A DNA stretch of 64,000 bases, from the NCBI GenBank assembly GCA_026545225.1, contig CM048848.1, forward strand, positions 16,481,353 to 16,545,352, written 5' to 3'. This document shows, one piece after another, positions 18,501-64,000 of this stretch. The position numbers and the translations under genes were made by a program. The notes beneath the pieces are model-generated. The model was not told the DNA's origin and ran no database searches. It saw only the letters and a list, made by a program, of their open reading frames with translations. This DNA is from Cornus controversa (taxonomy: Eukaryota > Streptophyta > Magnoliopsida > Cornales > Cornaceae). How positions within the stretch are numbered: the first letter of the stretch is position 1; the number at the start of each line of letters is the position of its first letter.

Positions 18501-20592
18501 CTCACGAAAGATCACAACCATATGGTGCTTTGTGCCAAATTCGACCATCTGCACAACTAAAAGAAACAAGTAGCACGCGATCGATGATTTTAAACAAGTT
18601 TAGTTTGAGTTGTTCTGATTCAAAAACCCCATTCCTAGAGAAGTCGTGCCATAATCAGAATCGAACATTACTTTTTTCCAAATTAGACCATCAAAGTGTC
18701 CAAAAGAAATGACGACCATGTCAATCCGAACTTCGTCACAAACGTATGGTGCTTTGTTCCAAATTCGACCGTTTGGGCATCTAAAGGAAACAATTAGCAA
18801 GCTACCAACGATTTTAAGCTTGTTTCATTTGAGTTGTTCTGATTCGAAAACCCCATTACAGGAGAACTCGTGCCATAATACGAATCGTACGTTGGTTTTT
18901 CGAAATTAAACCGTCAAAGCGCCCCAAAGAAACGACGAGCATGTCGATCCGATCTTCATCTAGTTTTGTTTGAGCCATTATGATTCGAAAGAGCAAGTCA
19001 TTAGAGAAATTGTGCAACGTCACAACCGTATGGTCTTTCGTGACAGATTCTGCTGTCTGAACATTTAGCAGAAACAGTTAGCACGCTATCTATGATTTGA
19101 AATTGTTTCACTTGGGTTGTTTTGATTTGAAATGCCCCATTCCTTGAGAAATTATCCCGTAATTAGAATCGTACACTGTTTTTCTACAAAATTGGACCGT
19201 CAAGACATCCGAAAGAAACGACGAGCATGTCAATCCGATCTTCATCCAAGTTTGTTTGAGTTATTCTGAGTCGAAAAGAACAATTTTTTCAAAAATCAAG
19301 CATGACCACAACCGTATGATGCTTTGTGCTAGAATTGACCGTCTGAATGTCCAGAAGAACAGAGAATGACAACAACGGTTTCGAACTTGTTTCGTTTGAC
19401 TTATTTTGATTAGAAAAGTCCGAATCCAAGTGCAATCGTGACATACTTAGAATAATACGTTGCTTTATGCGAAATTCGACCGTGAGGACATCCTGAATTG
19501 AAAAGAGTAATTCCTTGCTGCACTCACGAAAGATCACAACCATATGGTGCTTTGTGCCAAATTCGACCATCTGCACAACTAAAAGAAACAAGTAGCACGC
19601 GATCGATGATTTTAAACAAGTTTAGTTTGAGTTGTTCTGATTCAAAAACCCCATTCCTAGAGAAGTCGTGCCATAATCAGAATCGAACATTACTTTTTTC
19701 CAAATTAGACCATCAAAGTGTCCAAAAGAAATGACTACCATGTCAATCCGAACTTCGTCACAACCGTATGGTGCTTTGTTCCAAATTCGACCGTTTGGAC
19801 ATCTAAAGAAAATAATTAGCATGCTACCAACGATTTTAAACTTGTTTCATTTGAGTTGTTTTGATTCGAAAACCCCATTGCAGGAGAACTCGTGCCATAA
19901 TACGAATCGTACGTTGCTTTTTTCAAAATTAAACCGTCAAAGCGTCCCAGAGAAACGACGAGCATGTCAATCCGATCTTCATCTAGTTTTGTTTGGGCCA
20001 TTATGATTCGAAAGAGCAAGTCAATAGAGAAATCGTGCAACGTCACAACTGTATGGTCTTTTGTGACAGACTCTACAGTCTGAACATTTAACAGAAACAA
20101 TTAGCACGTTATCAATGATTTGAAATTGTTTCCCTTGGATTGTTTTGATTTGAAATGCCCCGTTCCTAGAGAAATTATCCCGTAATTAGAATCGTACATT
20201 GCTTTTTACCAAATTGGACCGTCAAGACATCCAAAAGAAACGACGAGCATGTCAATTCGATCTTCATCCAAGTTTGTTTGAGTTGTTCTGAGTCGAAAAG
20301 AACAATTCCTTTCAAAAATCAAGCATGACCACAACCGTATGATGCTTTGTGCTAGAATTAACCGTCTGGATGTCCAGAAGAATAGAGAATGACAACAACG
20401 GTTTCGAACTTGTTTCGTTTGACTTGTTTTGATTAGAAAAGTCCGAATCCAAGTGCAATCGTGCCATACTTAGAATAATACGTTGCTTTACGCGAAATTC
20501 GACCGTGAGGACATCCTGAATTGAAAAGAGTAATTCCTTGCTGCACTCACGAAAGATCACAACCATATGGTGCTTTGTGCCAAATTCGACCA
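9576..20592. repeat. Satellite run, mostly 1022 bp HORs, up to the solo LTR
   Basis: Units start at 9576, 10598, 11620 (1364 bp), 12984, 14007, 15030, 16052, 17074, 18096, 19118 and 20140. Units 17074-20139 are near-identical 1022 bp copies. Unit 16052-17073 is a hybrid that switches from a 1022-class A/B into a 1365-class second B near 16240. 10598-13667 repeats 1-3070, and about 14272-16072 repeats about 9840-11640. The final unit is interrupted at 20592. Confidence 0.9.
20588..20592. repeat. Target-site duplication, left copy (GACCA)
   Basis: GACCA directly precedes the TG of the solo LTR and is repeated directly after its terminal CA at 24450-24454. A 5 bp duplication is what LTR-retrotransposon integrase produces. 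Confidence 0.9.
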
Positions 20593-21627
20593 TGTCACGC
20601 CCCGGTTTCCGACACCCGGTTAGGAGCGAGGGAAACGGGGGTGAATCCGTAATTTCACCTCAAGTTCCCACACCTTAATCTCATTTTAATCTATTCTATT
20701 GCGGAAGCATTCTATATGTACACCATTCAGGTGACATAAGATCATCAATGGCCCTTGCAAATGATTTTCACGAAAATCGGGCATGACCCATTCTAAATAA
20801 TCAGCCCCTGGTGTGATGTACCTGCTTTACAATTTATATGGACACTTCTGGGCACGTGTCCCCCCAGCATTTATATCTAAACAATAAAATGAACACTTCT
20901 GGGCCCGTGTCCCCCCCAAACTTTCTACAACATGCATAAAACAATCATAATTATACATGCCTCAGTCCTTGAATGTCCGTATTAAATCTATACATCACAT
21001 GAATGAAATACATCTGAAGGAACTGAATCACCATATTCGCTCCATACATCTAACCCAAATGTCCTAGTTATACATTAAATTCTAAAGAATTTAACTACTA
21101 CCTCTGCCACCGGTACTATGAGTCCTCTAACTGACTCCGTAATCAGCAATACCTGCAAAACCTGGGAGGGGGTGAGCTCAAAGGCCCAACAAGATAAGTA
21201 GAACCATACTATCATCGCAGCAGCAGGTCGATCCTCACATATTCTCAAAACTATACATGCACTTAAATATATCATAATATTTAAAGTCATGCCCCTCCTA
21301 ACATACATGAACCAATAATGCACATGGCAGTTTTAGCATTTATGAACATTTAAATCAACTATACATGACTTATGAAATCATTTACAACATGTTCAAGGCA
21401 GTACACATCCAACGTCATTATGTATAGAAAACATACATGAACAGAAGCATTTACATGAAGAATGTGAATCAAATACCACGTCACCTACTCAACAAGATCC
21501 ATTGAATCATGCATAAATGCACATGCTCATGCATTTTTACCCAAACATCCACATTTCTCAAATCATGCATGATGCTTCACATGAAGTGCAAATACATACG
21601 TATATAACTCACACCAAACTAATTCAT

Positions 21628-21758
21628 AAGGGGCTTTCTCATCACTCCAATAGTAAGGGTCTCTTCGGCACCCAAACTCTGCTTGTGCTTTATCGGGTTA
21701 CTAACCCGAAGGGAGCACCTCCTCTTGGCCAAGTTTTGGGTCTTTCACCCTAGGGGCC
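21628..21758 (-). promoter_or_regulatory. 131 bp invariant, hairpin-rich LTR block (solo LTR copy)
   Basis: The reverse complement is identical over 131 bases to 62027-62157 in the other LTR, whereas most of the two LTRs is clearly diverged. The sense strand holds GGGT-GAAAG-ACCC, the palindrome CTTGGCCAAG, a GTGCT...AGCAC stem enclosing CGGGTTA-G-TAACCCG, and a second GGGT...ACCC pair. It lies about 1.2 kb from the LTR 3' end and downstream of the putative promoter, so it would be in R/U5 RNA. The function is unknown; an RNA structure or regulatory role is inferred. Confidence 0.65.
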
Positions 21759-22493
21759 ATCCCCTTATCTTAATTTTCACACTCCTGCCCCAAAATCATA
21801 TATATAGTGCATATAAGCACACTCATGCACTTATCCACACCATGAATGCATTTTTGTCAAATCAATGCATTTTCCTTTCACCTCAAGATTGTCACAATGT
21901 CATCACACTCATATCATGGAAACCATCATGCTTATGCATTTTTCAAGAAAGTCATTTCTTTCATGCATAAATCTGTAAACACCACGTCTTCACGTTTTCA
22001 CCAATGAACACATTTCTCACAGAAATCATTCATAATCAGATTTGCACATTCACAACATATATATAGATGTCACTTCTTGCATATAATCACATATATACAT
22101 ATATTAGCACCAATATAATCATGCTTTCATTCCAATCATGCATTTACTACGAGCAACCAACATGCATTCTTACAACTATATACAATCACGCAAATACATA
22201 TATACATATACATATGTAACATGTCACCCATACAGGTAGTAAAAACATACAGGACAATTCACATATTTCATGCTTTTTCAATGCTCTTCTATGCTATAAT
22301 CAATTTAGCATGCATTTCTACAACTGCACCAAATATATAAACACATGTATATTTATGTATACTCAACTCCTGCATAAGAATCATATGAGCATGCAAGGCA
22401 ACATCTAGCTAAATATACATATATAATTTAGCATGCTTTACATGTCTCAATCTCTAAACATGCATATAACAATGTTCTAACCCTCCAAGCCCG

Positions 22494-22612
22494 CATATAT
22501 ATATAGATATATCTACCCACATATACAAGTGTCCTCACATCCCACATATATATATATATAAACACCTTTATATATATATATATATATACATATACACATA
22601 TATATATATATG
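22494..22612. repeat. AT/TA microsatellite cluster in solo LTR
   Basis: Several runs of alternating A and T separated by short unique spacers. This is low-complexity sequence within the LTR; no gene. Confidence 0.9.
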
Positions 22613-22849
22613 CAAACACCACATATGACCAAATTAAGAACATATGTAAAATTACTCAGCATATCTAAAATACATAGAGATAGAGGCAAGAATCAACTTG
22701 CCTTATGTCCCGTTTCGCCAAGTCCGCGCTTGCAAAGCGGTCCTCTTCCAAGTCCGGTCCAGTCCTGTGTCAAAACCCACCCAACTGATCCAACTGAACC
22801 TTCGTTTAAATTGACCCAATTCCAAGGTCCAATTCATTACTCTAAACTT

Positions 22850-23919
22850 GTTTCATAAACCATGCTTAGCCCACTTGCCCAATTTAATCAACTTGAGGCC
22901 CAATTCACATCAACCAAACCTAATATGGAAGCCCAACCCAGCTGAACTATCTACTGTCATGGGGCCAATTCCATTGATACCCAAACCATGAGAAATCTCC
23001 ACATGGCTGCCAAGGCCCCATAGCCGAACTCCATATACTCACTATCAACTATGATAGCCCATCAACCATGGTCACCCCCACCATCATCAACCCCAAGCAA
23101 AAACCATGCAAACCAGCCCATTGAAGCTCCATGAACAATTCACAGCCATTAATGGCTGACCAAAACATTATGAATCACCAAACACCCACCATCCCCTTGG
23201 TGGTGCACCAGCCCCTCTACGGCTAGGGCCATCACCATGAGCCATACAAGCTCAACCCGCACTGAGCTTTCTCAGCACCACCATCATCGGCCACCACCAA
23301 TAAGCCAAAATAGTCAACCGGACCACAATTTCCACAGCCAAATAGACCCACAACAGTGACCACTACGGGCTGTCCAAATCGAATCTCCAAGCTGCCAAAC
23401 CCAGCCATTATCCACCCAAACTGTGAGCTCCACCAGCTACCTCAAGCCACCATCATCAGCCGTCCATGGCTATTCCCACCACTAGGTACGGTGTCATCAC
23501 CAGCCACGGTCAGCCCGCCACCTACAGGAGCCGCAAGTCACAACTGAAGCCATGGGAAACCAGCCACGAACGGCCAGAACCAAGAAGACCCATCCGAGCC
23601 TCCATCGACCACCAACAGCCACCATGAACCGCTATTCAGCCACCGCCAGCGAACCCACAAACCAGCCGAGCTCAACCCCCGGCCGAACAGCGCCTCGTCG
23701 GCCGTGAACCCCCTGCCGGACGAGCGCACTAGCTGCCGGACAGACCCCCTTCGCGAACGGCTCGGCCGAACCGAGCTACCACGCGCTCACCTGCAACCAC
23801 CACCTTCAGCCGCTGCCACCAACCGTGGCTGGCCGTCGAGAGGCCCACGTCGGAGCAGCCGCCGGAGCACCGAAGCATCTCCTCTCTCCCTGATCTCGGC
23901 CCCTCTCTCTCTCCCCGAC
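22850..23919 (-). other. Strand-asymmetric low-complexity stretch of the solo LTR
   Basis: The + strand is strongly C- and A-rich (CCACCATCATC-like and CCAGCC-like runs) and poor in G, so the LTR sense strand is G/T-rich. The other LTR has a matching G/T-rich stretch at about 60310-61040 on its sense strand, so the asymmetry is a family trait. Short open frames here are compositional and resemble no protein known to me. Confidence 0.6.
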
Positions 23920-24017
23920 TTCTCCCTCTCTCTCTTCTTTTTCTTTTCTTTTTCTTTTTCCTTTTCTTTTCTTCTTTCTTTCTTTTCTTTTCTTTCTTTT
24001 TCTCTTTTCTTCTCTCA
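23920..24017 (-). repeat. Purine-rich tract of the LTR (CT-rich on + strand)
   Basis: About 100 bases almost entirely C and T on the + strand, i.e. A/G on the LTR sense strand. The counterpart in the other LTR is 60136-60310. In both copies it follows the putative TATA box by roughly 60-90 bases. Confidence 0.8.
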
Positions 24018-24079
24018 GCCGAATGTGGTCTTCTCTTATCTATACCACATGTTTCATCAACCACTCTCCTCCACACATA

Positions 24080-24086
24080 ATTTATA
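24080..24086 (-). promoter_or_regulatory. Putative LTR TATA box (TATAAAT)
   Basis: On the LTR sense strand, TATAAAT is followed after a few bases by GTGGAGGAGAG. The other LTR has TATATAA (60050-60056) followed by the same GTGGAGGAGAG at nearly the same spacing. The shared arrangement, about 0.36 kb (solo) and 0.53 kb (other copy) from the LTR start, suggests the U3 promoter. Nearby AT microsatellites make a chance TATA match possible. Confidence 0.4.
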
Positions 24087-24249
24087 CATACATACAAAAT
24101 CTAATATGTATATATGTATTATCACATGTGTGTATTACTAAACACTTGTACACATACACCCTATACACATGTATTCCTTTTTCCCACTCACATGTTTAAT
24201 AATACATGTGATAAAATTTATCTATATTCAAAAATAGATATACTTATCA

Positions 24250-24320
24250 TATATATATATATCTCCCATATATATATATAACTATAGCCTCCATCTTCAT
24301 ATGTATATATATATATAATT

Positions 24321-24359
<39 letters not shown>
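24250..24359. repeat. AT microsatellites near the sense-strand start of the solo LTR
   Basis: Three alternating AT runs, the longest being 24323-24359. These are simple repeats within U3. Confidence 0.9.
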
Positions 24360-24360
<1 letters not shown>

Positions 24361-24449
24361 CATATTTTCGAATTTTAATTTATTCGAAAAAAAAATCGGT
24401 CCGGTCCAAAATCACCCGGAACCGGTCAAAATTCATTCCGGTCCTTACA

Positions 24450-24454
24450 GACCA
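24450..24454. repeat. Target-site duplication, right copy (GACCA)
   Basis: Matches 20588-20592. The satellite continues in exact phase after it: removing the LTR and one GACCA restores a 1023 bp step between block A at 20140 and at 25025. Confidence 0.9.
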
Positions 24455-56500: not shown

Positions 56501-59500
56501 GGTTTTTCGAAATTAAACCGTCAAAGCGCCCCAAAGAAACGACGAGCATGTCGATCCGATCTTCATCTAGTTTTGTTTGAGCCATTATGATTCGACAGAG
56601 CAAGTCATTAGAGAAATTGTGCAACGTCACAACCGTATGGTCTCTCGTGACAGATTCTGCTGTCTGAACATTTAGCAGAAACAGTTAGCACGCTATCTAT
56701 GATTTGAAATTGTTTCACTTGGGTTGTTTTGATTTGAAATGCCCCATTCCTTGAGAAATTATCCCGTAATTAGAATCGTACACTGTTTTTCTACAAAATT
56801 GGACCGTCAAGACATCCGAAAGAAACGACGAGCATGTCAATCCGATCTTCATCCAAGTTTGTTTGAGTTATTCTGAGTCGAAAAGAACAATTTTTTCAAA
56901 AATCAAGCATGACCACAACCGTATGATGCTTTGTGCTAGAATTGACCGTCTGAATGTCCAGAAGAACAGAGAATGACAACAACGGTTTCGAACTTGTTTC
57001 GTTTGACTTATTTTGATTAGAAAAGTCCGAATCCAAGTGCAATCGTGACATACTTAGAATAATACGTTGCTTTATGCGAAATTCGACCGTGAGGACATCC
57101 TGAATTGAAAAGAGTAATTCCTTGCTGCACTCACGAAAGATCACAACCATATGGTGCTTTGTGCCAAATTCGACCATCTGCACAACTAAAAGAAACAAGT
57201 AGCACGCGATCGATGATTTTAAACAAGTTTAGTTTGAGTTGTTCTGATTCAAAAACCCCATTCCTAGAGAAGTCGTGCCATAATCAGAATCGAACATTAC
57301 TTTTTTCCAAATTAGACCATCAAAGTGTCCAAAAGAAATGACGACCATGTCAATCCGAACTTCATCACAACCGTATGTTGCTGTGTTCCAAATTCGACCG
57401 TTTGGACATCTAAAGGAAACAATTAGCAAGCTACCAACGATTTTAAACTTGTTTCATTTGAGTTGTTTTGATTCGAAAACCCCATTGCAGGAGAACTCGT
57501 GCCATAATACGAATCGTACGTTGGTTTTTCAAAATGAAACCGTCAAAGCGCCCCAAAGAAACGACGAGCATGTCGATCCGATCTTCATCTAGTTTTGTTT
57601 GAGCCATTATGATTCGAAAGAGCAAGTCATTAGAGAAATCGTGCAACGTCACAACCGTATGGTCTTTTGTGACAGATTCTACTGTCTGAACATTTAACAG
57701 AAAGAGTTAGCACGCTATCAATGATTTGAAATTGTTTCAGTTGGGTTGTTTTGATTTGAAATGCCCCATTCCTAGAGAAATTATCCCGTAATTAGAATCG
57801 TACATTGTTTTTTTTACCAAATTAGACCGTCAAGACATCCAAAAGAAACGACGAGCATGTCAATCCGATATTCATCCAAGTTTGTTTGAATTGTTATGAG
57901 TCGAAAAGAACAATTCCTTGCAAAAATGAAGCATGACCACAACCGTATGATGCTTTGTGCTAGAATTGACCGTCTGGATGTCCAGAAGAATAGAGAATGA
58001 CAACAACGGTTTCGAACTTGTTTCGTTTGACTTGTTTTGTTTCGAAAAGTCCGAATCCAAGTGAAATCGTGCCATACTTAGAATAATACGTTGCTTTATT
58101 CGAAATTCGACTGTGAGGACATCCTGAATCGAAAAGAGTAATTCCTTGCTGCACTCATGAATGATCACAACCGTATGGTGCTTTGTGCCAAATTCGACCA
58201 TCTAGCCAACTAAAAGAAAAGTTTGTTTGAGTTGTTATGAGTCGAAAAGAACAATTCCTTGCAAAAATGAAGCATGACCACAACCGTATGATGCTTTGTG
58301 CTAGAATTAACCGTCTGGATGTCCAGAAGAATAGAGAATGACAACAACGGTTTCGAACTTGTTTCGTTTGACTTGTTTTGATTAGAAAAGTCCGAATCCA
58401 AGTGCAATCGTGCCATACTTAGAATAATACGTTGCTTTATGCGAAATTCGACCGTGAGGACATCCTGAATTGAAAAGAGTAATTCCTTGCTGCACTCACG
58501 AAAGATCACAACCATATGGTGCTTTGTGCCAAATTCGACCATCTGCACAACTAAAAGAAACAAGTAGCACGCGATCGATGATTTTAAACAAGTTTAGTTT
58601 GAGTTGTTCTGATTCAAAAACCCCATTCCTAGAGAAGTCGTGCCATAATCAGAATCGAACATTACTTTTTTCCAAATTAGACCATCAAAGTGTCCAAAAG
58701 AAATGACGACCATGTCAATCCGAACTTCATCACAACCGTATGTTGCTGTGTTCCAAATTCGACCGTTTGGACATCTAAAGGAAACAATTAGCAAGCTACC
58801 AACGATTTTAAACTTGTTTCATTTGAGTTGTTTTGATTCGAAAACCCCATTGCAGGAGAACTCGTGCCATAATACGAATCGTACGTTGGTTTTTCAAAAT
58901 GAAACCGTCAAAGCGCCCCAAAGAAACGACGAGCATGTCGATCCGATCTTCATCTAGTTTTGTTTGAGCCATTATGATTCGAAAGAGCAAGTCATTAGAG
59001 AAATCGTGCAACGTCACAACCGTATGGTCTTTTGTGACAGATTCTACTGTCTGAACATTTAACAGAAAGAGTTAGCACGCTATCAATGATTTGAAATTGT
59101 TTCAGTTGGGTTGTTTTGATTTGAAATGCCCCATTCCTAGAGAAATTATCCCGTAATTAGAATCGTACATTGTTTTTTTTACCAAATTAGACCGTCAAGA
59201 CATCCAAAAGAAACGACGAGCATGTCAATCCGATATTCATCCAAGTTTGTTTGAATTGTTATGAGTCGAAAAGAACAATTCCTTGCAAAAATGAAGCATG
59301 ACCACAACCGTATGATGCTTTGTGCTAGAATTGACCGTCTGGATGTCCAGAAGAATAGAGAATGACAACAACGGTTTCGAACTTGTTTCGTTTGACTTGT
59401 TTTGTTTCGAAAAGTCCGAATCCAAGTGAAATCATGCCATACTTAGAATAATACGTTGCTTTATTCGAAATTCGACTGTGAGGACATCCTGAATCGAAAA

Positions 59501-59522
59501 GAGTAATTCCTTGCTGCACTCA
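50586..59522. repeat. 2387 bp super-HOR (1365 + 1022), three full copies and a partial fourth
   Basis: Block A steps from 50586 are 1365, 1022, 1365, 1022, 1365, 1022 and 1365 bp. Super-units therefore start at 50586, 52973, 55360 and 57747, each exactly 2387 bp apart. The fourth is truncated by the LTR insertion at 59523. Confidence 0.88.
59518..59522. repeat. Presumed left target-site duplication (ACTCA)
   Basis: These are the five satellite bases before the TG of the plus-strand LTR. The right-hand copy would lie outside the window, so the duplication cannot be confirmed here. Confidence 0.45.
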
Positions 59523-59575
59523 TGTAAGGATCGGGTTATTTTGACCGATTCCGGATTATTTTTGGACCGGATTAA

Positions 59576-59589
59576 TTTTTTTTTTTTTT
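59576..59589 (+). repeat. Poly-T run near LTR start
   Basis: Fourteen consecutive T. A shorter equivalent run exists at the matching place in the solo LTR. Confidence 0.9.
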
Positions 59590-59612
59590 CAAATAAATTG
59601 GCTTCGAAAATG

Positions 59613-59723
59613 CGGATATATATATATATATATACAGATAGATAGATGAAATTACATACATTTATACGGAGGTGAAGAAGATGGATACCTATATATATAT
59701 GGGATTATATATATAGTTGAAGG

Positions 59724-59754
<31 letters not shown>

Positions 59755-60017
59755 GACATGTGTATATTATATATATATATATATCGGGTGTATTTATATT
59801 TAATTATATATACTTATAGATACATATATATATTATATATATATGAGGAGAAGGGAGTGAGGTATTTATGAATATGTTATATAATTATATGCATATATAT
59901 GGGGGGAAAAGCCCAAATTGGACGGCTGTGAATGTGAAGGTATGTGTTTATTATATATATATATACATCTCATAGTTGGTGCACTAGTACTAGTTGTATG
60001 GCTGATATATTGTAGGG

Positions 60018-60056
<39 letters not shown>
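59613..60056. repeat. AT microsatellite cluster in U3 of the 5' LTR
   Basis: Repeated alternating AT runs (about 59613-59632, 59690-59850 and 60019-60056), separated by short unique stretches. The solo LTR has the same feature at its sense-strand start. Confidence 0.88.
60050..60056 (+). promoter_or_regulatory. Putative LTR TATA box (TATATAA)
   Basis: End of an AT run followed by TGAGTGGAGGAGAG. The solo LTR has TATAAAT before the same GTGGAGGAGAG. The shared context argues for the U3 promoter, but it abuts a microsatellite, so confidence is modest. Confidence 0.4.
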
Positions 60057-60057
<1 letters not shown>

Positions 60058-60135
60058 GAGTGGAGGAGAGTAATTCGTGGAAGTGTTGTGGTGCACAGGA
60101 GATGTAAGAAAAGTAAGAAGATATTTTTACTTTAT

Positions 60136-60310
60136 GAGAAGAAGAAGACCAAGAGTGGGTCAGCTGGCAGAGAAGAAAAAATAAAAGAAAAGAAAGAAGG
60201 AAGAGAGGGAAAACAGAGAGTTTTAGAGAGAGAAAGCTTGAGGTATAGAGAGAGAAGGATAGCTGCAAAGGAGAAAGAGAAAGGGGAAAGGAGAAGGAAG
60301 CCGAGAGTGG
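60136..60310 (+). repeat. Purine-rich tract of the 5' LTR
   Basis: About 175 bases dominated by A and G (GAGAAGAAGAAG, GAAAGAAGGAAGAGAGGG), matching in position and composition the 23920-24017 tract of the solo LTR. If the TATA assignment is right, it lies just inside the transcript. Confidence 0.75.
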
Positions 60311-61142
<832 letters not shown>

Positions 61143-62026
61143 TAGATAGTGTGTTGGGGCCTAGACTTTTGAATTGAATTGGGCTTCAAGGATGGACCAA
61201 TATTTAGAGAGTGGGCTGCCATTACATTTGATGTTGGATAATTGAGTGGGTTGGACCAGTACATGGGCTAGAAAATATTTGAGAGATTATTCTTATGAGT
61301 TGGTCTAGCTTGACTAGAAATTTGGACACATGATTTGAGTTTAACATTTGGACTGGGCCAGAAACTTAAAATAGGCCCAGTAGTTTTTAAGAGAAATAAA
61401 TGGTGGATTTGGTGTTGGGCTGGATCAGCATTGGGCTTGGGCCCAATCTCATTTAAAAATGGAGACTTTTCATCGACTTTGGATACTCGTGACCGTATAA
61501 CATAAATTTGACAAAGCAGTGGAAGGCGATCTTTTCAACCTTCTCGGGAATTGGAGATTTTTGGAGTTCTCACTCCAAATTGAGGTAGGGGTGCTAGACT
61601 CACTTCTACTTTGATCTTGTGGTCCCTTTCTAAATATCATAAGAGCTAGCTTTTGATTTCTTGAACCTAGGTCTATGTATATATATATATATATATGTAT
61701 ACCATGGTGATTTATACATGTATAAGTGTCCAACATGTTAGTTAAGGCTTATGCGTGGTATATATGTGCAAATGTGACTATAATGCTTTTGGTGAAAAAT
61801 GTGTTTGTTTGATGAAAACATGAAAAATATGATTTTCTAGCAAAATCCATGAACATAGTGATTTTCATGATGTGAGTGTGATAGCATTGTGACAATCTTG
61901 AGTTGGAAGGAAAATGCATTGATTTGATGAAAAAAATGCATGCAGTGTGTGACTATGTGCATTGGTGTGATTATATGCACTATATGATGATTTTGGGGCA
62001 TGAGTGTGAAATTAAGATAAGGGGAA

Positions 62027-62157
62027 GGCCCCTAGGGTGAAAGACCCAAAACTTGGCCAAGAGGAGGTGCTCCCTTCGGGTTAGTAACCCGATAAAGCAC
62101 AAGCAGAGTTTGGGTGCCGAAGAGACCCTTACTATTGGAGTGATGAGAAAGCCCCTT
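62027..62157 (+). promoter_or_regulatory. 131 bp invariant, hairpin-rich LTR block (5' LTR copy)
   Basis: Identical to the reverse complement of 21628-21758. Inverted repeats visible: GGGT 62035-62038 with ACCC 62044-62047; palindrome CTTGGCCAAG 62052-62061; GTGCT 62067-62071 with AGCAC 62096-62100, enclosing CGGGTTA 62077-62083 with TAACCCG 62085-62091; and GGGT 62112-62115 with ACCC 62125-62128. Flanking sequence from about 61840 to 62340 is also better conserved than the rest of the LTR. It would lie in the 5' leader of the element RNA, where retroelements keep dimerisation, packaging and translation signals. The role is inferred, not shown. Confidence 0.68.
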
Positions 62158-62844
62158 TGACGTGATTTGGTGTGAGTTATATATGTATATATATATAAGT
62201 TGCGACTTGTCCAATTTGATATGTATATATATATATAGACATATGTATTTGCATTTTATGTGAAGCATCATGCATGATTTGAAAAACGTGGATGTTTGGG
62301 TAAAAATGCATGAGCATGTGCATTCATGCATGGCTTACGGGTTAGAGTGGGGATGGGTGGATCATTTCTACTGAGCCGTTGAGATGCTCACCCCCTATAT
62401 ACAAATTTTTTTCAGATAAAGCATCACCGGAGGATGAGACTTAGAGTGCTAGAGTGATCGAAAGAATACTTTAGAATTTCTTTTGGATATAGTGTTATGA
62501 ATTGTATATTTGGCTATCCATGCCGGCATGTGGCATGTGGATTATATTGATCTGAGATTACAATTATATTGATGTAACTTATTTTTTTATATGGATCCAT
62601 GGACATTAGAAATGTGAGTTAGTGTTTATACATTGTGCAAAAACTTGTATAAGGATTATGAGAGTGTTGAGATATAAATTGATGATTTAGAGTATGTATG
62701 TTTTACGCTTCCGCATTGACTTAAGGGTTGAGACCTCGGCACGGTGATGGAATCTCCGGTGACCGAGGCTTTGATGTGTGATTTCACCCGTTCACACCCC
62801 TCTTCCTTCGCTCCTAACCGGGTGTCGAAAGTCGGGGCGTGACA

Positions 62845-64000
62845 ACATGGTATCAGAGCGTAACCGGGTTTGAATACCTATGGACGACGGGAAAGGGTTA
62901 AGCCACGTGTTGGATAGGAACGACTTGATGATTTTCGGATTGCTATTAGAGCATTAGGTTTGAAGACCTAGGGTATCATAGTTATAGGTTCGAATACCTA
63001 AGGACAGAGAGTAACGTATTGGTTTTAGAGATATACACTAACTGGTTGTTGTTTGAACGATAGGTTTGATTACCTTTTGACAATTTCGAAATGATTAGCT
63101 TGGTGTAAGTGATCATAATGAAAGAACAATGTGTTGGTGTGTGAAACTGATTTTCATTTGGTAATACTCCCAGAGTTGGTTGAGTTGAAACTCTTGACTT
63201 GATGTTGAGTCATGTTAGTGAGCAATTGAGAGAGAATGCAAAGAAGGTTGAGTGTTTGAATCCTTATGGATACTTAGGGGCTTATGTTACGTGGTTGATA
63301 AGTGTTATGTTAGGGTTGACCATTGAGACTGAAATAGGAGACGAGAGAGGCATGTTGTCGGAGTTGGGCTAGCTAGGAAAAATGGACTGATCAACCAATT
63401 TTTCTTAGATTAGTACTTCTCTTACAATCCGCCGACTCTCATGGGTGTTGAGTTGTCTCGTCCGAGTGACGAGGGATAAAGAACTAGTGATGGAATGATT
63501 TCAAGTGTGGACGACTTCCAATAGTAGAGAGGTCGAGTGTATTATCTTAGTTTCTAGCTCATGGACTAGGGTGTTGATAGAGTTACGTGCATCTCATTCA
63601 TTCATTCATTCATATGCATTTACTTGTGCTTGTGCCTTGGGGCTAGAGATGTCATCTTTGGAGTCACCATGGTCCATTGATACATCTATTGGGAATTGAG
63701 TTACCTTGATTTTTGGTTGGTTTTACTAGACTTGGATTACGGGATGTCGATTGGTGTTCGACTTTGAGTTACTAGATGTGACTAGTTTTGCTGCGATGAT
63801 TCTCAGTAGTGATATGAGAAAATAGCGTTGTTGTGATATGTGACGAGATAGTAAGAGTGTGACTTAAGGCACACTTGAAGGATTATAATTCATAATTTTG
63901 AAAGCTGAAATTGCTTGAGTGTGATGGTTGATTTGGAAAAGATTTGAAAATCTTGGTAAAGGTATGACTTGTTTGGCCTTAGTGTTGAAATGCACTGTTG
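62845..64000 (+). mobile_element. Start of the retroelement internal region (untranslated leader)
   Basis: After the LTR and primer-binding site the sequence is unique and non-satellite. I recognise no gag, protease, reverse transcriptase or integrase motif before the window ends, so this is best read as the long leader upstream of gag. It contains four related short motifs of the form TAGGTTTGAATACCTA (near 62866, 62955, 62984 and 63061). The rest of the element lies outside the window. Confidence 0.75.
62848..62859 (+). other. Primer-binding site for initiator tRNA-Met
   Basis: TGGTATCAGAGC, three bases after the LTR end. It is complementary to the 3' terminus of plant initiator tRNA-Met, including CCA. 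It fixes the element's orientation as plus and identifies 59523-62844 as the 5' LTR. This primer is used by Ty3/gypsy chromoviruses and also by several Ty1/copia lineages. Confidence 0.93.

What the first reader, a model, noticed from the sequence alone, without database searches (positions are those of the whole stretch)
62027..62157. 131 bp perfectly conserved, multi-hairpin block inside otherwise diverged LTRs
The sense strand here equals the reverse complement of 21628-21758 at every base, although the two LTRs differ in length and are visibly diverged over most of their length. The block contains GGGT-GAAAG-ACCC, the 10-base palindrome CTTGGCCAAG, a GTGCT/AGCAC stem enclosing CGGGTTA-G-TAACCCG, and another GGGT/ACCC pair. 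Hairpins next to a self-complementary palindrome in the 5' leader of a retroelement RNA recall the layout of dimerisation and packaging signals. It could also be a translation or polyadenylation element. Recent gene conversion between the copies is the main alternative.
Basis: partly seen in the sequence, partly recalled or inferred. Interest (0 to 1): 0.78.

Follow-up and report, generated by a model that had tools for sequence, protein, structure and literature searches.

The report
Conserved core in plant retrotransposon LTRs
A short stretch shared by two different jumping-gene remnants in this plant-like genome turns out to be the conserved core of a very large group of parasitic (protein-less) LTR retrotransposons, probably a signal in their RNA, although its exact job is not shown.

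Summary
The 131-bp identity is real, but it does not link the two LTRs of one element. One copy is in a 3,857-bp solo LTR (TSD TGGTC). The other is in the 3,322-bp 5' LTR of a young non-autonomous element (TSD ACTCA, LTRs 99.5% identical, 3.8-kb internal domain in which only a broken protease was recognised). Both lie in satellite DNA. The block is not confined to two copies: all 40 places scored in the window's own genome match at 100%, and a 27-base piece occurs exactly 1,028 times.

Six LTR representatives show two conserved arms (27/30 and 26/34 columns invariant) around a variable centre (18/40). Near flanks have 55% and 35% (60% and 57% without the solo LTR). The arms form an imperfect inverted repeat. 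RNAalifold gives one extended hairpin, but single folding prefers local hairpins in 7 of 10 alleles. Covariation is thin and neither strand is favoured. The identity of the two copies also reflects mosaic exchange between LTR subfamilies.

Best reading: a cis-acting RNA element of a LARD-like family, most likely packaging/dimerisation. That function is inferred.

The parts
59523..62844 (+). 5' LTR (3,322 bp) TGTAAGGATCGG...GGGGCGTGACA of the element that carries the block; TSD ACTCA at 59518-59522
   Evidence: the 3' LTR in L031:6649-9970 is 99.5% identical and is followed by ACTCA
62027..62157 (+). the 131-bp block (allele A)
62032..62061 (+). left conserved arm; 27 of 30 columns invariant in six LTR representatives
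62035..62047 (+). GGGT-GAAAG-ACCC local hairpin; in the alternative fold its arms pair with 62112-62115 and 62125-62128
62052..62061 (+). 10-base palindrome CTTGGCCAAG
   Evidence: exact in 8 of the 10 aligned alleles
62062..62101 (+). variable centre (18 of 40 columns invariant) with stem GTGCT/AGCAC and hairpin TCGG...CCGA, whose lower 4 pairs are kept
62102..62135 (+). right conserved arm (26 of 34 columns invariant), imperfect inverted repeat of the left arm
62848..62859 (+). primer-binding site TGGTATCAGAGC (initiator-Met-type, recalled); the same letters stand in the Cassandra search pattern of PMC7215508
63499..63696 (+). remnant of a retroviral-type aspartyl protease (RVP_2, 66 aa, broken) in the internal domain
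   Evidence: (29.5 bits, cut-off 20.3), tested on the overlapping locus L031:3500-3697
20593..24449 (-). solo LTR (3,857 bp) TGTAAGGACCGG...GGGGCGTGACA; TSD TGGTC at 24450-24454 and 20588-20592
21628..21758 (-). second copy of the 131-bp block, in the solo LTR

Best explanation
The block is the conserved core (about 62032-62135) of the LTR of a very large group of non-autonomous, LARD-like LTR retrotransposons. Shown: its left arm has more than a thousand exact copies; two arms that are inverted repeats of each other are nearly invariant across the LTR types compared while their near flanks and the centre have diverged; allele A is shared between LTR subfamilies as part of a mosaic. Inferred: the arms form an extended, internally looped hairpin in the element's RNA that can switch to local hairpins exposing the palindrome CTTGGCCAAG, and this is a cis signal read by the proteins of an autonomous partner. 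Packaging/dimerisation is most likely, because protein-less elements need little else in cis besides promoter, ends, primer-binding site and polypurine tract. Exchange by template switching between co-packaged RNAs would explain both the mosaic and the uniform core.
For: All 40 scored places identical over 131 bp (best-first); 1,028 exact copies of the 27-mer, control 0. In 30 loci taken by the LTR 3' end (of 40 matches), 29 hold the block: 14 identical, 6 with one difference, 9 divergent; some are tandem neighbours. Arms 90% and 76% invariant columns against 55% and 35% in the near flanks and 45% in the centre, six representatives including the solo LTR; without it the flanks have 60% and 57%. 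RNAalifold on 10 alleles chooses one extended hairpin of 24 pairs, 99.2% of cells paired, 2 pairs with two-sided changes, 20 of 500 shuffles as good; consensus energy z -3.2 against column shuffles, 2 of 300 as low. At the stem pair of alignment columns 45-76 the genome holds 8 copies with T-G (wobble, paired) and 1 with C-A (unpaired) in otherwise fixed sequence (two-sided p 0.04; pair picked after seeing the alignment). The element is young (LTRs 99.5% identical) and of six plus-strand frames of 45 aa or more only a broken protease was recognised.
Against: Few independent alleles (about five families), so covariation is weak; one of the two two-sided pairs rests on a decayed copy (L054), and the fold was derived from the same alignment on which it was counted. 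The minus strand gives a better consensus z (-4.1), so RNA strand is not shown and a DNA-level inverted repeat fits too. Single-allele folding is unremarkable (z -0.5 to -2.4 on the plus strand), and the local hairpins are more stable than the long-range fold in 7 of 10 alleles. The GGGT/ACCC letters serve both folds, so their conservation cannot choose between them. The upper half of the central hairpin breaks in families D and F. Between the window LTR and four other types the last 450 bp are more conserved than the block, though that sample was chosen through this end. In 39 decayed F copies C>T and G>A are about equal (94/1205 and 113/1599), with no sign of strand-specific selection. No transcript data, no autonomous partner found.
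Confidence: 0.4

Rival explanations
1. The core is a DNA-level element, such as a cluster of transcription-factor sites (palindromes CCTAGG, CTTGGCCAAG and the GGGT/ACCC repeats) in the U3 promoter shared by these LTRs.
For: Sequence conservation of the arms and the better inverted-repeat symmetry on the minus strand do not need RNA. The position of the transcription start is unknown.
Against: The arms can pair with each other over positions kept in 98-100% of cells, and variants in the centre keep the TCGG:CCGA and CGC:GCG stems, which a set of protein sites would not need. The block ends 687 bp from the LTR's 3' end, which may suggest R/U5 rather than U3, but this is only an inference.
Confidence: 0.25
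2. No function: allele A is identical only because it descends from a recent common source and was spread by recombination or conversion between LTR subfamilies.
For: Clear mosaic: the window LTR matches four C-F type LTRs at about 95% over its last 450 bp but matches the solo LTR mainly around the block. The 37 distinct flank pairs of exact blocks in hand (56 rows, some of them the same place fetched twice) fall into three flank classes, one of them (L009) with the look of a recombinant. F copies decay as if neutral.
Against: In the representative pair of the two main classes the flanks directly beside the identical 131 bp are 90% and 85% identical, and the identical run ends at the block edges on both sides (the pairs with L009 run on by 25 and 53 bases on one side). 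The arms are also conserved in divergent alleles C-F, where the centre is not.
Confidence: 0.2
3. A structured RNA element for export of unspliced element RNA from the nucleus, or for translation, comparable in layout to the MusD transport element.
For: A possible long imperfect hairpin with internal loops. Such elements exist in LTR elements: PMC12786077, passage on MusD MTE.
Against: No Rfam match on the block; no export or expression data; no intact coding frame was found in this copy, so a translation element would serve nothing here.
Confidence: 0.1

Closest known systems
LARDs (large retrotransposon derivatives) of plants
   Same: Very long LTRs, several-kb internal domain without recognised intact genes, primer-binding site present, numerous. 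[quoted passage not shown]
   Different: A broken protease remnant is present; the conserved core here lies in the LTR; sequence relation to the barley LARDs could not be tested.
Dimerisation/packaging signals of LTR retrotransposons (yeast Ty1 PAL sequences and pseudoknot; BARE1/BARE2)
   Same: Palindrome beside hairpins in an LTR element; the Gag-less BARE2 is said to keep dimerisation and packaging signals and is packaged by BARE1 (PMC3735527; PMC4974528; passages seen).
   Different: No sequence comparison was made; no proof that the block is in the packaged RNA; Ty1/BARE are Ty1/copia elements, whereas this one has an RVP_2 remnant and is probably Ty3/gypsy-like (inference).
Retrosat2 family (Ty3/gypsy with LTRs over 3.2 kb)
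   Same: LTR length class (PMC3485330, abstract and passages seen).
   Different: Retrosat2 has two ORFs, one for the enzymes of retrotransposition; no conserved LTR block of this kind was mentioned in the passages seen.

Membership tests
LARD (non-autonomous LTR retrotransposon) | Two near-identical LTRs with TSD and primer-binding site | tested here: met
   LTRs 99.5% identical, TSD ACTCA on both sides, PBS TGGTATCAGAGC 3 nt after the LTR
LARD (non-autonomous LTR retrotransposon) | Large internal domain without functional gag-pol | tested here: met
   About 3.8 kb internal; longest plus-strand frame 66 aa; of six frames of 45 aa or more only one has a Pfam match over its cut-off (RVP_2 remnant). 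Minus-strand frames up to 120 aa were not searched
LARD (non-autonomous LTR retrotransposon) | Mobilised by an autonomous partner | tested here: inconclusive
Retroelement packaging/dimerisation signal | Conserved RNA structure with covariation | tested here: inconclusive
   24-pair fold 99.2% kept, 2 two-sided changes, 20 of 500 shuffles as good; strand not resolved; local fold more stable in 7 of 10 alleles
Retroelement packaging/dimerisation signal | Located in the genomic RNA (R/U5 or leader) and bound by Gag | not testable with these tools
   no transcript or binding data
Known structured RNA family | Match to an Rfam model | tested here: not met
   No match over the block even at E up to 1

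The most novel reading that the evidence does not exclude
A bistable RNA element, an extended hairpin that can open into local hairpins and expose a 10-base palindrome, is the shared entry ticket of many protein-less retrotransposon subfamilies to one set of particles, and is passed between them by template switching while the rest of the LTR diverges.
Probability: 0.2. Interest if true: 0.65.

Novelty: new member of a known kind. Interest (0 to 1): 0.38.

Why it matters
[quoted passage not shown] A short conserved core with a thousand and more natural copies, in elements that have few genes left to conserve, would make such a signal directly testable. If it is only a recombination hitchhiker, it is a clear case of modular LTR evolution in a centromere-like satellite.

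Tried and rejected
Rfam scan of 59000-64000: eight weak hits below gathering scores, none on the block, most over TA/TG repeats. No tRNA in the window. A hammerhead core was considered by eye (TGATGAGAAAG near 62140) and dropped, because the stretch lies in the variable tail and lacks the recalled core. Exact block pieces are absent from viral contigs and genome contigs, as expected for plant DNA. A paper search for four exact letter strings found one unrelated paper, holding the LTR-end string by chance. A first global MAFFT profile of 30 loci was discarded: loci are not oriented and the block itself was misaligned; one search had the same orientation fault and was replaced. The idea that the 5' and 3' LTR of one element were compared was rejected (solo LTR with its own TSD). 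Search for an autonomous partner: no result; a gag-like piece in L053 (Retrotrans_gag, 20.5 bits, below the 24.1 cut-off) was not followed, nor were antisense frames of up to 218 aa in L063-L065. The joint change ACCC>ACCT with TTTG>TTTA seen in L054 and L094 was not weighed as evidence, since both changes are common decay in that old family; the count does include the L054 cell. L052 was aligned with the LTR representatives but left out of the column counts. Searches were partly waiting time for the busy machine.

Full report
OBSERVATION. The 131 bases at 62027-62157 are the exact reverse complement of 21628-21758 and the match cannot be extended by a single base. The window is a satellite array with about 341/1,022-bp spacing, interrupted twice. 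The first interruption is a solo LTR at 20593-24449 on the minus strand (3,857 bp, TSD TGGTC). The second is the start of a full element at 59523, whose 3,322-bp 5' LTR carries the block; its 3' LTR lies outside the window, is 99.5% identical and is followed by the same TSD, ACTCA. So the two copies come from two insertions. Over most of their length the two LTRs are about 50% identical in a forced alignment (57% over 3,014 aligned positions), but 61819-62332 aligns well, with flanks at 87.7% of aligned positions.

NOT A TWO-COPY EVENT. The window lies in an unnamed 771.7-Mb assembly (plant-like by its element types; no call names it). A search with the block gave 1,707 first-look candidates; 40 were scored and all 40 are 100% identical over 131 bp (best-first, so biased). 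To lessen that bias I searched with the LTR 3' end instead: of 40 matches 30 were cut out, and 29 of 30 hold the block, 14 identical, 6 with one difference, and 9 with 101-121 matching bases; some of these loci are tandem neighbours. A search with a flank of the solo LTR gave 12 cut loci of 40 matches: 9 identical, 3 with one difference. The exact 27-mer GGGTGAAAGACCCAAAACTTGGCCAAG occurs 475 + 553 = 1,028 times, its reversed control 0 times. Searches with two divergent alleles gave 2,428 and 1,362 first-look candidates, 40 scored each, at 97-100% and 87-100%.

WHAT THE ELEMENT IS. The internal domain is about 3.8 kb; its longest plus-strand frame is 66 aa, and of six pieces of 45 aa or more only one matches Pfam over its cut-off, an aspartyl-protease remnant (RVP_2, 29.5 bits, window 63499-63696); the 108-aa form in L034 scores 38.7 bits. 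Antisense frames up to 120 aa exist and were not searched. The primer site TGGTATCAGAGC follows the LTR by 3 bases. In 8-kb stretches at three divergent copies (L063-L065, the places of L042, L047 and L049) no sense frame reaches 120 aa, while antisense frames reach 218 aa. This is a LARD-like, non-autonomous element. No autonomous partner was found.

CONSERVATION AND MOSAIC. Comparing representatives of six LTR types (window, solo, L042, L047, L049, L054; L052 left out), the left arm 62032-62061 has 27 of 30 invariant columns, the right arm 62102-62135 has 26 of 34, the centre 18 of 40, the left near flank 132 of 242 and the right near flank 81 of 232. Without the solo LTR the arms and centre keep these numbers and the flanks have 145 of 242 and 132 of 232. 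The last 450 bp of the LTR have a mean pairwise identity of 93-94% among the window LTR and the four non-solo types, so there they beat the block, but only 44-54% between window and solo LTR; those four were chosen through this end. So the window LTR is a mosaic: its block segment goes with the solo type, its 3' part with the others. Among 56 rows of exact blocks with 400 bp on both sides (some the same place fetched twice; 37 distinct flank pairs) there are three flank classes, one of them (L009) with the look of a recombinant. In the representative pair of the two main classes the near flanks are 90% and 85% identical and the identical run stops at the block's edges. I read this as exchange plus constraint, but exchange alone is not excluded.

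STRUCTURE. Ten alleles out of 58 distinct rows (18, 40 fetched) were aligned by choice, one to three per family, families A and C-F being my labels. RNAalifold picks one extended hairpin: TAGGGT with ACCCTTA, ACCCAAAaCTTgGC with GCaGAGTTTGGGT, CGC with GCG, TCGG with CCGA. Of 240 cells 99.2% are paired; two pairs show two-sided changes, one of them only in the decayed L054; 20 of 500 shuffles reach these values. Against column shuffles that keep conservation classes, z is -3.2 on the plus strand (2 of 300 as low) and -4.1 on the minus strand (0 of 300), so the inverted repeat is real but the strand is open. The two GGGT/ACCC hairpins are kept in 100% and 97.5% of cells, and the upper part of the CGGGTTA hairpin is broken in families D and F. 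Local and long-range folds lie 0.2 to 6.3 kcal/mol apart; the local one is more stable in 7 of 10 alleles, the long-range one in 3. This allows, but does not show, a switch, and it speaks against the extended hairpin as the only fold. In fixed surroundings the genome has 8 copies with T-G and 1 with C-A at the stem pair of columns 45-76; equal numbers are expected by decay from C-G because both sides are CpG, p 0.04, or 0.07 without the one copy that also differs elsewhere. The pair was picked after seeing the alignment, and the counts of the two Watson-Crick forms did not complete. In 39 old F copies the changes are mainly C>T (94 of 1,205) and G>A (113 of 1,599), nearly strand-symmetric: neutral decay.

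MECHANISM. Shown: position, copy number, arm conservation, inverted-repeat symmetry, mosaic. Inferred: the block is in the RNA, folds, and is recognised by the proteins of a partner element. A protein-less element must keep in cis only promoter, ends, primer site, polypurine tract and packaging/dimerisation signals, and the palindrome beside hairpins fits the last, as PAL sequences are suggested to do in Ty1 (PMC4974528, passages). BARE2, which lacks Gag, is said to keep dimerisation and packaging signals and is packaged by BARE1 (PMC3735527, passages). LARDs and TRIMs are described as having well-conserved RNA structures (PMC7215508, passages). Rivals are a DNA-level promoter element, pure recombination history, and an export element like the MusD MTE (PMC12786077, passages).

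NOVELTY. A new member of a known kind. The four exact letter strings searched turned up only one unrelated paper in the held library; searches for Tekay/solo LTR/centromere, for LARD with packaging, dimerisation or conserved LTR regions, and for BARE/dimerisation showed no paper on such a core in the listed titles and abstract starts. Five papers were opened, all in passages only, one (PMC3485330) also in outline and abstract.

Noticed in passing
G000:C1:37658885-37704955, C3:5060317-5082139, C6:2162670-2182916 (place lists): Blocks or block flanks recur at regular 6.7-7.7-kb steps, seven in a row at C1, which points to tandem LTR-internal-LTR arrays like those described for Cassandra (PMC7215508).
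   Followed up: no
window 1-20587, 24455-59517: Satellite array with repeat steps of about 341 and 1,022 bp in a higher-order pattern; both LTR insertions lie in it, a centromere-like setting.
   Followed up: no
L053:243-719 (-): A 159-aa frame with a weak Retrotrans_gag match (20.5 bits, below cut-off) in the internal domain of one divergent copy.
   Followed up: partly
G000:C4:20073280-20083297: Two exact blocks 9.9 kb apart: internal domain estimated at about 6 kb from the LTR lengths, long enough for gag-pol; could be the autonomous partner.
   Followed up: partly
window 62525-62550, 62738-62761, 62802-62826: Runs of 24-26 invariant bases near the LTR 3' end in five LTR types; the stretch TCGCTCCTAACCGGGTGTC is shared with the solo LTR too.
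   Followed up: no
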